Part shown: piece by piece, positions 55,991 to 60,717 of the stretch
Position numbering within the stretch: the first letter of the stretch is position 1
Layout: each line of letters begins with the position of its first letter
NCBI RefSeq assembly: GCF_023910635.1
Contig: NZ_JAAVVZ010000016.1
Span: forward strand, 1-60,717
Length of the DNA: 60,717 nt
From: Sphingorhabdus sp.
Lineage (GTDB): Bacteria; Pseudomonadota; Alphaproteobacteria; Sphingomonadales; Sphingomonadaceae
Reading direction: 5' to 3'
Notes under the pieces: model-generated
Seen by the model: the letters and a program-made list of their open reading frames with translations, nothing else
What the model was told of the DNA's origin: nothing
The model's database searches: none
Program-made: the position numbers and the translations under genes

Positions 55991-56125
55991 CGTCACCCTG
56001 AACTTGTTTGACCGATGGTCACTTCGTTCCAGGGTCCATTTATCATCCGCAACCGGCGGTTTGTTGGGCACGATGGATCCTGAAACAGTTGTGCTCTGCA
56101 CGCCTTCGGCTCCAGGATGACGGGA
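55991..56125. repeat. Family C repeat (C1) between lspA and ileS
   Basis: It begins CGTCACCCTGAACTT and ends CTCCAGGATGACGGG, with GGTTTGTTGGGCACGATGG in the middle. The ends are inversely related, as in the copy at 59452-59585 on the other side of ileS. Directly next to it is a second palindrome (56136-56207). Confidence 0.75.
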
Positions 56126-56135
56126 TTGGGAGAAT

Positions 56136-56207
56136 CTTTGTGTCTTTGTGCCTTTGTGCGAACCAAATAAAGTTGATGGTTCGCACAAAGACATGAAGGC
56201 ACAAAGA
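56136..56207. repeat. Long imperfect palindrome between lspA and ileS
   Basis: CTTTGTGCCTTTGTGCGAACCA and TGGTTCGCACAAAG with GGCACAAAG form a large hairpin around AATAAAGTTGA. It touches the end of ileS and could terminate or stabilise its transcript, although it lies partly on the family C boundary. The CTTTGTG units are also short direct repeats. Confidence 0.65.
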
Positions 56208-56213
56208 AGCGTG

Positions 56214-59200
56214 CTACCCACCAACAACATCCGCACAGCGACCGCACAATGCGCCGTCGTCGACAACCTCGGGAAGATGCCTCCAACAGCGACCGCATTT
56301 GTGGTTGGTGGTCTTGGTGACGAACACAGGAACGCCAACCAAACCATCAACCTGCTCAAATTCGGCTTTGGAGACGATAAGTAGCTCAGCCAAATCGGTT
56401 TCATCCGCATGGGACAACTGAACCTTAACTTGCGCCTCTAAACTGGAGCCGATTGTTTTATCACGTCGGTAAGGTTCAATCGCTTCTGTTACAGTGCGCC
56501 GCACGTCTCTTAAACGAGACCACTTGGCAACCAACTCGTCGCCCCAGCGCAGGCTGGGGCCTATCCCGTCTATCGAACCAACGCCGCCCTGGGTTGCAAG
56601 GCGTGATGGACCCCAGCCTTCGCTGGGGTGACGGGTGATGGGGAGTTCCGGCCAATCCGAAAAATGCACGCTGTCCGCATCGGGGAAGCGCGTCTGCCAT
56701 ACTTCTTCGCTGGTAAACACCAGCACGGGCGCGGCGTAGCGGACGAGGGCGTGGAACAAAGTGTCAAGCACCGTGCGGTACGCCATGCGCTTTGGATCCG
56801 TCGCGGCATCGCAATAGAGGCAATCTTTACGGATATCGAAGAAAAAGGCCGACAGGTCTTCATTCGCAAAATCGGTCAGCAACCGGACATAGCTATTAAA
56901 GTCGAAGTCATTGACCGCCGTCTTCAACTTCGCATCCATGTCCGCCAGCAGATGGAGCATATAGCGCTCCAGCTCTGGCATGTCGGCGACGGCAACCTTC
57001 TCGGCATCGGAAAACCCATCGAGCGCGCCCAGCAGATAGCGGAAGGTGTTGCGCAATTTGCGATATTGGTCGGACACGCCAGCAAGGATTTCCTTGCCAA
57101 TGCGATGGTCCTCGGTGAAGTCCACGGTCAGCGCCCATAGCCGCAAGATATCCGCGCCGCTGTCACGCATCAGGTCCAACGGGTTGATCGTGTTGCCCAA
57201 GGACTTGGACATTTTCATGCCCTTTTGGTCCATGGTAAAGCCATGCGTCAGCACGGCATTATAGGGCGCACGGCCCCTTGTGCCGCAGCTTTGCAAAAGG
57301 CTTGACTGGAACCAGCCACGATGTTGGTCGCTGCCTTCGAGATACAAATCCGCAGGCCATGACAGATCAGGCCAGCGCCCGCTTTCAAGCACAAAGGCAT
57401 GGGTGCAGCCCGAATCGAACCACACATCCAATATGTCGGTTACGCGCTCATAATCAGCGAGAGCATAATCGCTGCCCAGATATTCTTGCGCGCGTTCGTC
57501 GGACCAACCATCGACGCCATTTTCGCGGATGCCGGCGATGATGCGGGCATTGACGCCCGCGTCGTCGAGATATTGGTTGGTTCCCTTTTTCACAAAAAGC
57601 GTGATCGGCACGCCCCATGCGCGTTGCCGCGACAGCACCCAATCGGGGCGGCCTTCGACCATCGACGACAGGCGATTGCGCCCCTTTTCAGGGATGAAGC
57701 GCGTTGCAGCGATGGCGGAGGTAGCGGTTTGACGTAATGTTGAAAGCCCCTCCCCTTCAGGGGAGGGGTTGGGGTGGGGTTTCTCCGCGAACGCGGCGCC
57801 AGACGGAGAGACCCCACCCCCGTCCCCTCCCCTAAAGGGGAGGGGGGATAATTGCGTATCCATCGGCACAAACCATTGCGGGGTGCAGCGGTAAATGACC
57901 TTCGCCTTCGACCGCCAGCTATGCGGATAGCTATGCTTGTAATCCGCCGACGCCGCGAGCAACCCTCCACTTTCGCGCAACGCTGTGCAGATCGGACCGT
58001 CCGGCGCGTTGAACTTGGGGTTGATGACGCTGCCCTCACCGCCCAGCCAAGCCCAATCCGCACGATATTTGCCATCGGCTTCGACCGCAAAGACCGGATC
58101 AATGCCGTTCGCCTTGCACAGGTCGAAATCATCCTCGCCATGGTCAGGCGACATATGGACAAGCCCGGTGCCGCTGTCGGTAGTGACAAAGTCGCCTGCG
58201 AGCATTGGGCGGGGGCGCAGGAAGAATTCCGCAAGCGGGCTATCCCGGTTCAATCCTAGAAGCCCCTCCCCTTCAGGGGAGGGGTTGGGGTGGGGTTTCT
58301 CCGCGAACGCGGCGCCAGACGGAGAGACCCCACCCCCGACCCCTCCCCTGAAGGGGAGGGGTGAAGAAAAGAACTGCGCCATGGGATGGCGGACGGTGGT
58401 TCCGGCGAGGTCGGAACCTTTTCCTCGCCATTTGAATGGCTGCACTGGATCGCCATACCATTCCAATCCTGCCGAAGAAGGTCGGCCTTCTCCTATGGTC
58501 TGATTTCGGTCTAAAAATTGGAGCAATAGCGGCTCAGCTATGAGCAAGTATCGCATAGAAGCATTCGGCATTGATTGCCCGCCGCCTAACCATTCGGCTG
58601 AACCAACGGCGTCAGCCCACAGAACATACTCAACATCCGGCCCATAAGCGATCGCCTGATTGACCGGAATCGTCCAAGGCGTCGTTGTCCAGATCACCGC
58701 ATGCGCGCCGACCAGTTCCGCAATCGGGCTTTCCACAATCTGGAACGCCACATCGATCTGCGTCGAGACGATATCTTCATATTCAATCTCGGCCTCAGCC
58801 AGCGCAGTCTTTTCAACCGGCGACCACATCACGGGCTTTGCGCCACGATAAAGCTGCCCGCTTTCGGCGAACTTCAATAGCTCGGCAACAATCGTTGCTT
58901 CGGCCTGAAAATCCATCGTCAGATAGGGATTGTCCCAATCGGCATTGATGCCCAGCCGCTTCAATTGTTCGCGCTGCGTATCAACCCAATGCTGCGCATA
59001 AGCGCGGCATTCGGCACGGAACTCTTGCTGCGGCACTTCGTCCTTGTTGAGCTTTTTCTTGCGATATTGCTCCTCAACCTTCCACTCAATGGGTAGGCCG
59101 TGACAATCCCAACCGGGCACATAAGGCGCGTCCTTGCCCAACAATGTCTGCGTGCGGACAACCATGTCTTTCAGAATATGGTTCAACGCATGACCAATAT

Positions 59201-59417
59201 GCATGTCGCCATTGGCATAAGGCGGGCCGTCATGCAGGATGAACTTCTCGCGCCCACGGCGGCGGTTGCGCAGGTTCGCGTAGAAATCCTGCTCTTGCCA
59301 GCGCGCCAATATGCCCGGCTCCTTCTGCGGAAGGCCAGCCTTCATCGGAAAGTCTGTTTTGGGCAAGAAGACGCTATCGCGATAGTCTTGTTTCGGTGAG
59401 TCAGCAGGTTCGGTCAT
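56214..59417 (-). CDS. ileS: Isoleucyl-tRNA synthetase with three repeat-derived insertions
   Basis: The class I synthetase has the HIGH motif at residues 73-76 (GDMHIGHALNH), the KMSKS loop near residue 735 (GMKMSKSLGN) and a C-terminal zinc finger (CGRCWRHLPEV and ALCGRCADV). The protein is 1067 residues, about 98 more than expected. The excess is three in-frame insertions encoded by palindromic repeats: residues 353-385 and 525-557 (family A) and 929-960 (family E). The first lies in the editing domain region, the second in the catalytic domain and the third in the anticodon-binding part. The frame is intact throughout, so the enzyme is presumably functional. Confidence 0.95.
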   Translation of the reverse strand: MTEPADSPKQDYRDSVFLPKTDFPMKAGLPQKEPGILARWQEQDFYANLRNRRRGREKFILHDGPPYANGDMHIGHALNHILKDMVVRTQTLLGKDAPYVPGWDCHGLPIEWKVEEQYRKKKLNKDEVPQQEFRAECRAYAQHWVDTQREQLKRLGINADWDNPYLTMDFQAEATIVAELLKFAESGQLYRGAKPVMWSPVEKTALAEAEIEYEDIVSTQIDVAFQIVESPIAELVGAHAVIWTTTPWTIPVNQAIAYGPDVEYVLWADAVGSAEWLGGGQSMPNASMRYLLIAEPLLLQFLDRNQTIGEGRPSSAGLEWYGDPVQPFKWRGKGSDLAGTTVRHPMAQFFSSPLPFRGGVGGGVSPSGAAFAEKPHPNPSPEGEGLLGLNRDSPLAEFFLRPRPMLAGDFVTTDSGTGLVHMSPDHGEDDFDLCKANGIDPVFAVEADGKYRADWAWLGGEGSVINPKFNAPDGPICTALRESGGLLAASADYKHSYPHSWRSKAKVIYRCTPQWFVPMDTQLSPLPFRGGDGGGVSPSGAAFAEKPHPNPSPEGEGLSTLRQTATSAIAATRFIPEKGRNRLSSMVEGRPDWVLSRQRAWGVPITLFVKKGTNQYLDDAGVNARIIAGIRENGVDGWSDERAQEYLGSDYALADYERVTDILDVWFDSGCTHAFVLESGRWPDLSWPADLYLEGSDQHRGWFQSSLLQSCGTRGRAPYNAVLTHGFTMDQKGMKMSKSLGNTINPLDLMRDSGADILRLWALTVDFTEDHRIGKEILAGVSDQYRKLRNTFRYLLGALDGFSDAEKVAVADMPELERYMLHLLADMDAKLKTAVNDFDFNSYVRLLTDFANEDLSAFFFDIRKDCLYCDAATDPKRMAYRTVLDTLFHALVRYAAPVLVFTSEEVWQTRFPDADSVHFSDWPELPITRHPSEGWGPSRLATQGGVGSIDGIGPSLRWGDELVAKWSRLRDVRRTVTEAIEPYRRDKTIGSSLEAQVKVQLSHADETDLAELLIVSKAEFEQVDGLVGVPVFVTKTTNHKCGRCWRHLPEVVDDGALCGRCADVVGG
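56537..56633. repeat. Family E palindromic repeat inside ileS
   Basis: Bounded by CGTCGCCCCAGCG and CGCTGGGGTGACG, with matching inner arms AGGCTGGGGC and GACCCCAGCC, so each end is a hairpin and the two ends are inverse copies. It is about 97 bp and codes for residues 929-960 of IleRS (HPSEGWGPS to SLRWGDE) without a stop. Confidence 0.88.
57747..57845. repeat. Family A palindromic repeat inside ileS (copy A2)
   Basis: A 99-bp unit with terminal hairpins CCCCTCCCC-TTCA-GGGGAGGGG and CCCCTCCCC-TAAA-GGGGAGGGG and an internal GGGGTGGGGT/ACCCCACCCC pair. It is exactly 33 codons, starts on a codon boundary, and codes for residues 525-557 of IleRS. It is 97/99 identical to the copy at 58263. Confidence 0.92.
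58263..58361. repeat. Family A palindromic repeat inside ileS (copy A3)
   Basis: The 99-bp unit again has the paired terminal hairpins and is exactly 33 codons, coding for residues 353-385. It differs from A2 at two positions. The distance between A2 and A3 is 417 bp. In the coding strand the peptide runs PLPFRGG to PSPEGEG. Confidence 0.92.
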
Positions 59418-59451
59418 ATTAGAAGCGCCCTTAGCGCAAGAAATTGTATTT

Positions 59452-59585
59452 CGTCACCCTGAACTTTCTTAGGCATCACCAAAGTACAAATGGCTCACGC
59501 AGAGGCGCAGAGAAGGCAGAGCCATCGAACACCGTCATGCTAAGCTTGTGTGTGCCCTGCATGCCTACGGCTCCAGGGTGACGGG
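59452..59585. repeat. Family C repeat (C2) between ileS and ribF
   Basis: Starts CGTCACCCTGAACTT and ends GGCTCCAGGGTGACGGG, closely like the unit downstream of ileS. Inside and beyond it is another inverted pair, CACGCAGAGGCGCAGAG (about 59493) and CGCGCCTCTGCGTG (about 59608-59622). The 223-base gap between ileS and ribF is filled almost wholly by these repeats; no promoter was identified. Confidence 0.75.
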
Positions 59586-59640
59586 AACAGCAAAATCTCC
59601 GCGACCCCCGCGCCTCTGCGTGAACTTTCTCATTTAGAAA

Positions 59641-60570
59641 TCAGACTAAAATGTCGCGAGCCTTGTCACAATCCTTGGCCATCTGCACCATGAGCGCGTC
59701 GAGACTGTCAAACTTCGCCTCCCCACGAATAAAGGCGTGGAATTCGATTTCGATATTCTGGTCATATAAATCTTCGGCAAAGTCGAAGAAATGTGGCTCA
59801 AGCAATTCTTTGGGCGGGTCAAAGGTTGGGCGGATGCCCAGATTTGCCGCGCCGTTTAGCACGCGACCATCGGGCAAACGGCCCTTTACCGCATAAATGC
59901 CGTAACGCGGGCGCAGATAATGGCCCATGTCGATATTGGCGGTAGGAAAACCCAGAAGTCGGCCGTTTTTGTCACCATGTTGCACAATGCCTTGGACGGT
60001 AAAGGGTCGCGTGAGCAAGGCTGTCGCGGTTGCGCAGTTGCCGTCTTGCAACGCAGTGCGGACGCGGCTTGACGAGATGATACCTGCGTCATCGACCACT
60101 GGGCCCATCGCGGTGGAGGAAAGCCCATGCGCGCCACCCATATCGCGCAGCACATCGATATTGCCGCCGCGCGCTTTGCCAAAGGTGAAGTCTTCGCCCG
60201 TGACAACAGCCGAAATCCCAAGCCGTTCAATGAGCAATTTGACGATGAAATCTTCGGCGCTGGTCGCCGCAAGTTCAGCATCAAAATCAAACACTAACAT
60301 AGCGTCCGCGCCCGCGTCCTCGAAAAGCCGCCGCCGTTGGTCGAGCGTCGTCAGCCGGAACCAGGGCGATTGCGGCGCGAAAAAACGCACCGGATGCGGG
60401 TCAAATGTCGCGATGATGGCTGGACAGCCAGCCGCCTTCGCCTGCGCAATGGCTTCGCCTGCGACCGCCTGATGCCCCAAATGAAAGCCATCAAAATTGC
60501 CCAAAGCGACGACAGCGCCGCGCAAGGTATCAGGCATGCGGTCTTTGGCGGAAAGGCGGGGGATCATCAT
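59641..60570 (-). CDS. ribF: Bifunctional riboflavin kinase/FAD synthetase
   Basis: RibF converts riboflavin to FMN and then FAD. The 309-residue protein has the N-terminal FAD synthetase nucleotidyltransferase domain (VALGNFDGFHLGHQAV, ATFDPHPVRFF, VTGEDFTFGKARGG and ISSSRVRTAL) and the C-terminal riboflavin kinase domain (GFPTANIDMGHYLRPRYGIYAV, then LNGAANLGIRPTF and EIEFHAFIRGE). Two adjacent ATGs (60570 and 60567) are possible. It lies upstream of ileS and lspA, a conserved order in proteobacteria. Confidence 0.96.
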   Translation of the reverse strand: MMIPRLSAKDRMPDTLRGAVVALGNFDGFHLGHQAVAGEAIAQAKAAGCPAIIATFDPHPVRFFAPQSPWFRLTTLDQRRRLFEDAGADAMLVFDFDAELAATSAEDFIVKLLIERLGISAVVTGEDFTFGKARGGNIDVLRDMGGAHGLSSTAMGPVVDDAGIISSSRVRTALQDGNCATATALLTRPFTVQGIVQHGDKNGRLLGFPTANIDMGHYLRPRYGIYAVKGRLPDGRVLNGAANLGIRPTFDPPKELLEPHFFDFAEDLYDQNIEIEFHAFIRGEAKFDSLDALMVQMAKDCDKARDILV

Positions 60571-60580
60571 ATCTCGAAAA

Positions 60581-60697
60581 ACCGTAGCCCTGAGCCGTCA
60601 GTGCGATAGCACTGGCGAAAGTCGAAGGGCGGTATTGCGCAAATGGCCGCCCTTCGACGGACGCAGCCGCTGCGCGACTGCTGCTCAGGGCTACGGT
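60581..60697. repeat. Family B repeat (B4)
   Basis: A complete copy bounded by ACCGTAGCCCTGAG and CTCAGGGCTACGGT, with the inner GTCAGTGC-GATA-GCACTGGC hairpin and the GTCGAAGGGCGG/CCGCCCTTCGAC pair. It is 117 bp and sits directly upstream of ribF at the window end. Confidence 0.85.
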
Positions 60698-60717
60698 TAA
60701 GTCGAAACCTCATTGCG

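What the first reader, a model, noticed from the sequence alone, without database searches (positions are those of the whole stretch)
57747..58361. Two near-identical 99-bp palindromic repeats inserted in frame inside ileS
Both units are exactly 33 codons, fall on codon boundaries, contain no stop in the ileS frame and differ at two bases. They interrupt well-conserved parts of IleRS without shifting the frame. This parallels the protein-coding palindromic elements of Rickettsia (RPE), which I do not know to be described for sphingomonads. 97 percent identity over 417 bp separation suggests recent insertion or gene conversion. If the peptide is tolerated in an essential enzyme, the element may have evolved to be harmless in one reading frame.
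Basis: partly seen in the sequence, partly recalled or inferred. Interest (0 to 1): 0.82.

Follow-up and report, generated by a model that had tools for sequence, protein, structure and literature searches.

The report
Hairpin repeats tolerated inside essential genes
Short selfish-looking hairpin repeats sit in frame inside an essential bacterial enzyme gene, and unrelated repeats have settled in the same loops of this and three other enzymes in related species, which points to a simple rule for where proteins can take in junk DNA.

Summary
Two 99-bp hairpin units lie in frame in the only ileS found, encoding residues 353-385 and 525-557. A third in-frame palindrome, of another family, encodes about residues 928-961. 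The unit is a REP-type inverted dimer at about 21 places in the genome, 6 of them in frame inside recognised proteins (ileS twice, sufC, trmD, carA, mpl-like). The nearest IleRS is empty at all three sites. AlphaFold2 models all three inserts with very low confidence.

At one IleRS loop 27 of 66 Sphingomonadales rows carry a palindromic insert, needing at least 18 changes on a tree. SufC, CarA and TrmD show the same pattern.

Best reading: REP-like palindromes insert widely; selection keeps only frame-preserving copies in tolerant loops. In-frame palindromes are known (Rickettsia RPEs; REPs in tRNA synthetase genes of 'E. lithoralis' and 'S. alaskensis', PMC3733652), so this is a new member of a known kind. 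The shared loops are the informative part. A special harmless frame is not supported.

The parts
56214..59417 (-). ileS, isoleucyl-tRNA synthetase, 1067 aa, the only IleRS found in this genome
   Evidence: ORF; TIGR00392 above cut-off; Pfam; one G000 row in a list that ends near E 2e-27
58263..58361 (-). Site A insert: 99-bp palindromic unit (family F1, hairpins with C4TC4 arms), residues 353-385 (PLPFRGGVGGGVSPSGAAFAEKPHPNPSPEGEG)
   Evidence: one hairpin, z -10.5; short loop in G008 and in 23 of the 29 relatives' loci; pLDDT below 50 at 353-386
57747..57845 (-). Site B insert: 99-bp palindromic unit (family F1), residues 525-557, two mismatches to the site A copy
   Evidence: z -7.2 with DNA parameters; short loop in G008 and in 15 of the 29 relatives' loci, palindromes in 11; pLDDT below 50 at 528-556
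58340..58361 (.). 22-nt self-complementary hairpin at one end of the site A unit (REP-like monomer)
58263..58284 (.). 22-nt hairpin at the other end of the site A unit
57824..57845 (.). 22-nt hairpin at one end of the site B unit
57747..57768 (.). 22-nt hairpin at the other end of the site B unit
56534..56636 (-). Site C insert: different palindrome family, begins with CGTC in the gene's reading direction, about residues 928-961 (RHPSEGWGP...GPSLRWGDE), in frame
   Evidence: inverted repeat I1; sequence; within the genus set a similar insert only in G025 and another palindrome in G027; 47 matches in own genome, both strands counted; pLDDT below 50 at 929-958

Best explanation
The units are non-autonomous REP-type palindromes (inverted dimers of a 22-nt hairpin around a variable spacer). 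They and several unrelated palindrome families spread in Sphingomonadales genomes by a trans-acting activity not identified here. They land in many places; inside essential genes only copies survive whose total length keeps the frame and whose peptide falls in a tolerant, probably disordered loop. The ribosome reads through the hairpin, and IleRS carries three extra segments of roughly 30 residues each without loss of its fold. Because few loops qualify, independent insertions of unrelated families pile up at the same codons in different species. Shown: repeat, copy number, frame, empty sites in relatives, recurrence in four proteins, very low model confidence at the inserts. Inferred: mobility, translation through the hairpin, disorder and surface position, retained activity, purifying selection as the filter.
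For: Family with 43 matches in own genome, both strands counted, about 21 merged places, 6 in frame inside proteins recognised by Pfam or NCBIfam. Empty sites in relatives including the nearest IleRS, G008. IleRS site B: of 66 resolved rows 27 palindromic, 20 short, 19 long but not palindromic; at least 18 changes of palindrome presence on a quick tree. Long inverted repeats in 73 ileS genes of Sphingomonadales and rows grouping with them: 23 of 30 at the three loops; 3 in 34 other ileS genes, none at these loops. SufC loop: 9 of 30 loci filled, at least four kinds of palindrome, 20 empty, 1 unresolved; CarA linker: 7 of 30 filled; TrmD: 3 of 30 filled. Long inverted repeats: SufC 6 of 6, CarA 3 of 3, TrmD 2 of 4 at those loops. 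Three insert sequences were checked for copy number: 6 matches in G029 and 23 in G020; 24 in G034 and 11 in G010; 62 in G015. Segments of pLDDT below 50 are the three inserts plus 1-4, 272-286 and 308-325; fold matches IleRS, TM 0.90 to 8c9f by target length.
Against: No mobilising enzyme is identified: PF01797 has no match in this genome or in 21 of 22 same-genus genomes searched. No target-site duplication is visible, and residues flanking the inserts differ from empty-site relatives, so insertion was not a clean splice or the flanks changed later. The G034 site B insert matched only the ileS site in G029, and nothing in G007 or G000, so not every family is shown to be multi-copy where it sits in ileS. 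The G027 carA insert hardly folds (z -1.0). There is no protein-level proof of the peptides. Low model confidence at the inserts is partly expected because few aligned sequences cover them. The four proteins were chosen because this genome has an insert there.
Confidence: 0.85

Rival explanations
1. Targeted insertion: the loops are hit again and again because their DNA or mRNA contains a preferred target, so recurrence reflects the mobilising enzyme and not selection.
For: Different families at the same residue in SufC (67), CarA (209), TrmD (87) and IleRS (316, 440-445, 816-819).
Against: The families look unrelated in sequence (C-run, CGTC-ended, TTCGACA-type, CTCGAC-type), and the lengths of native loop left on either side vary. 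One shared target in six loops of four genes is unlikely, and about 15 of 21 places in this genome are not shown to interrupt a gene.
Confidence: 0.08
2. Palindrome turnover: one ancestral palindrome took the loop and was later overwritten or invaded by others, so the site is a palindrome landing pad rather than a set of independent insertions.
For: Nested palindromes inside the carA and mpl-like inserts of this genome. The R. japonica paper leaves hotspot versus common origin open for RPE-4/6/7 (PMC3767692, passages).
Against: Empty sites lie between insert-bearing lineages on the tree and in the nearest relative; the families share no sequence that I could recognise.
Confidence: 0.15
3. Domestication: the inserts serve the enzyme or its expression, for example by slowing ribosomes at a stable mRNA hairpin or by adding a binding peptide.
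For: Very stable hairpin in the mRNA; long non-palindromic loops at site B kept in several Novosphingobium, Sphingopyxis and Erythrobacter-type rows.
Against: Different sequences and frames at the same site and empty sites in close relatives argue against a conserved function.
Confidence: 0.05
4. Assembly artefact: a collapsed or duplicated repeat in a draft assembly.
For: Draft genome of 89 contigs; the two repeats are 97% alike.
Against: Both copies have unique flanks on one contig, keep the frame, and the same family sits at site B in G027 and at site A in the named record PKED01000052.
Confidence: 0.01

Closest known systems
Rickettsia palindromic elements (RPE), protein-coding palindromes of Rickettsia and Wolbachia
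   Same: 100-150 bp palindromic repeats, also intergenic, inserted in frame in conserved genes; different RPE groups near the same position in orthologues (PMC2229807 and PMC3767692, passages).
   Different: Another order; sequence relation to RPEs not tested. Here several unrelated-looking families share the same loops, and empty sites occur in sister species.
CGTC- and GTAG-tagged REPs and their dimers (BIME-like), Di Nocera et al. 2013
   Same: Short hairpins, inverted dimers, multi-copy, mostly intergenic, sometimes intragenic, including tRNA synthetases of 'E. lithoralis' and 'S. alaskensis'; [quoted passage not shown] The site C insert begins with CGTC.
   Different: The family at sites A and B shows neither tag in the copies aligned. 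The paper reports different REPs at about the same site for recB of two Xanthomonas species, and different sites for other genes of that functional category.
Bacterial MITEs
   Same: Small, non-autonomous, inverted repeats, open frames fused to genes (PMC2229807, passages).
   Different: No target-site duplication seen; built from REP-like monomers rather than transposon ends.

Membership tests
Rickettsia palindromic elements | Palindromic repeat of about 100-150 bp in several copies per genome | tested here: met
   99-105 bp unit, 43 matches, single hairpin
Rickettsia palindromic elements | In-frame insertion in conserved protein genes | tested here: met
   ileS, sufC, trmD, carA, mpl-like
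Rickettsia palindromic elements | Host in Rickettsia or Wolbachia | tested here: not met
   IleRS groups with Sphingorhabdus and other Sphingomonadales
Rickettsia palindromic elements | Sequence similarity to an RPE family | not tested
   No RPE sequence was fetched
REP / BIME | 20-40 nt palindromic monomers, multi-copy, often as inverted dimers | tested here: met
   22-nt hairpins singly and as dimers
REP / BIME | GTAG or CGTC tag at one end (the two described super-families) | tested here: not met
   Copies of the site A/B family shown mostly have AAG before the first hairpin and no such tag; the site C insert does begin with CGTC
REP / BIME | Mostly outside genes | tested here: inconclusive
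   6 of about 21 places interrupt a recognised protein; the other 15 were not shown to, but not every overlapping ORF was tested
REP with RAYT (REPtron) | Y1 transposase gene in the genome | tested here: not met
   PF01797: no match in G000 and in 21 of 22 same-genus genomes; draft assembly
MITE | Target-site duplication | tested here: inconclusive
   None seen in filled and empty sites side by side, flanks too diverged

The most novel reading that the evidence does not exclude
A handful of loops in essential proteins act as shared landing pads across a bacterial order: unrelated palindromic elements enter the same codons repeatedly, nest inside each other, decay at the DNA level and leave lasting new disordered protein segments (the 29-35 residue non-palindromic IleRS loops of Novosphingobium, Sphingopyxis and Erythrobacter-type rows being possible fossils), with a hairpin-directed insertion process that needs no RAYT.
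Probability: 0.2. Interest if true: 0.8.

Novelty: new member of a known kind. Interest (0 to 1): 0.55.

Why it matters
For Rickettsia it was left open whether orthologues with different palindromes at one place mark insertion hotspots or one old insert that diverged (PMC3767692, passages). Sphingomonads can help to answer this: unrelated-looking families, empty sites in sister species and four proteins give many separate events. The loops they mark are natural maps of where essential enzymes accept about 30 extra residues, and a route by which selfish DNA becomes protein sequence. Some relatives are named isolates, so an insert could be removed and the enzyme tested.

Tried and rejected
Special harmless frame: rejected, four of six frames are open and other genes read other frames. 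Fixed 33-codon length: rejected, six strict units are 93-99 bp. RAYT-driven spread in this genome: no PF01797 match. Import of the insert-bearing stretches by recombination from a distant lineage: window identities gave no clear donor, only slight similarity of the flanking loop residues to other insert-bearing lineages. Known structured RNA: no Rfam match at gathering score in 56000-60717. Target-site duplication: none recognised. ArgC-like and DUF559 places: the repeats lie outside the Pfam domains, so not counted as interruptions.

Weak spots told: the G027 carA insert is degenerate (z -1.0); G034 and G010 site A inserts fold weakly (z -1.8 and -2.3). One of the seven site A inverted repeats (L092) covers ordinary conserved sequence; of the seven repeats elsewhere one is a run of N and two lie before the start codon; two of four in TrmD lie at another, conserved place. 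A row was called palindromic at z of -2 or lower or by a family motif, so L096 (z -1.5) counts by motif; the family labels behind the figure of 27 changes are automatic and some are mixed, so that figure is rough. Control windows had mean z from -2.4 to 0.8, and one control window of L073 reached -9.1, not followed up. 'Same genus' genomes do not form one group on the IleRS tree (G011, G034, G010, G031, G029 and G027 stand apart), so gains and transfers of ileS cannot be told apart there.

In some searches only 30 loci of 42, 35 and 36 matching genomes were examined. A control with random loops or random proteins was not run, and the mpl-like gene was not compared with relatives.

Literature: ten paper searches listed no paper that I recognised as being on shared loops in sphingomonads; only openly licensed papers are held, most listed papers were seen as titles and abstract beginnings only, and supplementary tables of PMC3733652 could not be read.

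Full report
What is there. ileS occupies 59417-56214 on the minus strand (1067 aa). Two 99-bp units lie in it in frame at 58263-58361 and 57747-57845, with two mismatches, within a 105-bp direct repeat of 97% identity. Each unit is a 22-nt hairpin (C4TC4 arms), a spacer that is itself an inverted repeat, and the hairpin again, so that the whole folds as one long hairpin. A third in-frame palindrome, which begins with CGTC in the reading direction of the gene, lies at 56534-56636. No second IleRS of this genome appears among the listed matches, which end near E 2e-27, so the copy with inserts is probably the only one.

The family in this genome. The unit has 43 BLAST matches, both strands counted, in 3.05 Mb; I merged them by eye to about 21 places. 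Spacers differ, and six strictly defined units are 99, 99, 99, 95, 94 and 93 bp. Six places interrupt proteins recognised by Pfam or NCBIfam: ileS twice, an ABC ATPase that I read as SufC, TrmD (PF01746), CarA (between PF00988 and PF00117) and a Mur ligase that I read as Mpl. In carA and the mpl-like gene the insert carries a second palindrome nested inside. The unit is open in four of six frames; the sufC copy starts in one frame and ends in another, and the trmD copy is read in another frame again. The site C family has 47 matches, both strands counted; of 33 places looked at, one lies in a long ORF that I recognise as glyS beta, not confirmed by a search; the other places were not tested by Pfam.

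Relatives. The genome looks Sphingorhabdus-like: the nearest named record is S. rigui, which falls among its same-genus genomes on the IleRS tree. Among the 29 relatives' loci aligned, site A is short in 23, filled in 5 (G029, G020, G034, G010, and G027 as far as its contig reaches) and unresolved in 1; site B is short in 15, palindromic in 11, long but not palindromic in 1 (G011) and unresolved in 2. The nearest IleRS, G008, is empty at A, B and C. Other species carry other inserts at the same points: at A, RHSREGGNP...DPRLRGGD (G029; a variant in G020) and PLPDGERLGE... (G034, G010); at B, RPEPVEG...ASTSSA (G029, G034, G010), RSAELVEAR...STGSG (five genomes), SRLREGPGEG... (G015), PAQAGA...PAFAGAT (G031) and the C4TC4 family (G027); at C, an insert like the own one in G025 and another CGTC-type palindrome in G027. 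Three of these were checked for copy number, the match to itself included: 6 matches in G029 and 23 in G020 for the first; 24 in G034 and 11 in G010 for the second, which in G029 found only the ileS site and in G007 and G000 nothing; 62 in G015 and 22 in G000 for the third.

Breadth. Across Sphingomonadales the loop at site B holds a palindromic insert in 27 of 66 resolved rows, is short in 20 and long but not palindromic in 19; on a tree built without the inserts this needs at least 18 changes, and 27 with rough automatic family labels. The tree is a quick one with weak branches, and 'same genus' genomes do not form one group on it. DNA of most inserts folds far better than its shuffles; windows elsewhere in the same genes have mean z between -2.4 and 0.8. 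A scan for inverted repeats with perfect arms of 11 nt or more found 30 in 73 ileS genes of Sphingomonadales and rows grouping with them: 7 at site A (one of them ordinary coding sequence), 13 at B, 3 at C and 7 elsewhere (two before the start codon, one a run of N); 34 other ileS genes held 3, none at these loops.

Other proteins. I then asked whether the loops filled in sufC, carA and trmD are also filled by other families in the genus. SufC: of 30 loci, 9 have inserts, of at least four kinds (C4TC4 in G000 and G027; CCCCGGCGAAGGCCGGGG-type in G033 and G013; CTCGACTTCGCTCGAG-type in G035; TTCGACA-type in G010 and G034; CGTC-type in G065 and G029), 20 are empty and 1 is unresolved. CarA: 7 of 30 filled (C4TC4 in G000, G035 and a degenerate one in G027; CCCTCCCGC-type in G062; CTCGAC-type in G024, G015, G030), the other 23 short. 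TrmD: 3 of 30 filled (G000, G015, G065), three families, 27 short. The inverted-repeat scan puts 6 of 6 (SufC), 3 of 3 (CarA) and 2 of 4 (TrmD) at those loops. So all four proteins tested show recurrence. They were chosen because this genome has an insert there, and random loops were not tested.

Structure. Against solved bacterial IleRS 8c9e the three inserts fall where the aligned stretches break: query 519 to 560 spans chain residues 415 to 417, 925 to 957 spans 786 to 790, and 266 to 399 spans 254 to 302. AlphaFold2 with 49 sequences gives mean pLDDT 83.9; segments under 50 are 353-386, 528-556 and 929-958, which are the inserts, plus 1-4, 272-286 and 308-325. I take this as disorder, which is an inference. 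The fold matches IleRS 8c9f (TM 0.90 by target length). Surface exposure was not computed.

Spread. The C4TC4 family is patchy: 11 of 42 same-genus genomes (own included) have a match, 30 or more matches only in G000, G035, G025 and G027, one match in G008. The full-length copy nearest to the ileS units outside this genome is the carA insert of G035, 90%, closer than any other full-length copy in this genome (84%). PF01797, which by my knowledge covers RAYT and IS200/IS605 transposases, has no match in G000 and in 21 of 22 same-genus genomes searched. How the units move is therefore unknown.

Interpretation. The plain reading is insertion of REP-like palindromes nearly anywhere, followed by a strict filter in essential genes. 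Recurrence at the same codons by unrelated families is what such a filter predicts when few loops tolerate 30 extra residues. Targeting is less likely, since families, flanks and genes share no evident motif, though no motif search was run. Turnover within an existing palindrome contributes at least in carA and the mpl-like gene, where nesting is seen.

Known and new. In-frame palindromes are known from Rickettsia and Wolbachia (PMC2229807, PMC3767692; passages). Intragenic REPs are known in many bacteria, including tRNA synthetases of 'E. lithoralis' and 'S. alaskensis' (I read these as Erythrobacter litoralis and Sphingopyxis alaskensis), and different REPs at about one site are reported for recB of two Xanthomonas species (PMC3733652, section 15). 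Hence the finding is a new member of a known kind. The ten searches named under Tried and rejected listed no report, that I recognised, of order-wide sharing of loops by unrelated families.

Noticed in passing
window 56534-56636: Third in-frame palindrome of ileS, starting with CGTC, different family from the two reported; folded into the finding.
   Followed up: yes
L024 (G000:C78:74815-74918) and L150 (G000:C5:34252-34373): Second palindromes (GGACCAGTCC... and CTCTGTCC... types) nested inside the first palindrome within carA and an mpl-like gene, in frame.
   Followed up: partly
L168 around 1469-1501 (G000:C3:6968): Long ORF that reads like glycyl-tRNA synthetase beta (my recognition, no search) seems to hold palindrome-type inserts in frame (RSPAQAGA...DPGLRRGTQ and VTPAKAG...DSRLRGND).
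   Followed up: no
window 58383-58631 (IleRS residues 263-345): This stretch is very variable in the genus; G000 matches G009 in 67 of 81 aligned residues but G008 in 25 of 52, which suggests recombination of this piece between species.
   Followed up: partly
window 56135-56207, 56090-56137, 59551-59598, 60573-60698: Further inverted or direct repeats, mostly in the spacers beside ileS and the genes I read as lspA and ribF.
   Followed up: no
L127 (Hyphomonas), IleRS near reference residue 693: A palindrome outside Sphingomonadales in ileS at a different position (PREGGDLVRPETPAFAGV).
   Followed up: no
IleRS site B in L061, L066, L067, L068, L070, L089, L093, L101: 29-35 residue loops of similar sequence without palindromic DNA; possibly decayed inserts, possibly native.
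   Followed up: partly
IleRS tree: Genomes labelled same genus (G011, G034, G010, G031, G029, G027) stand apart from the main genus group by IleRS; label breadth or ileS transfer not settled.
   Followed up: no
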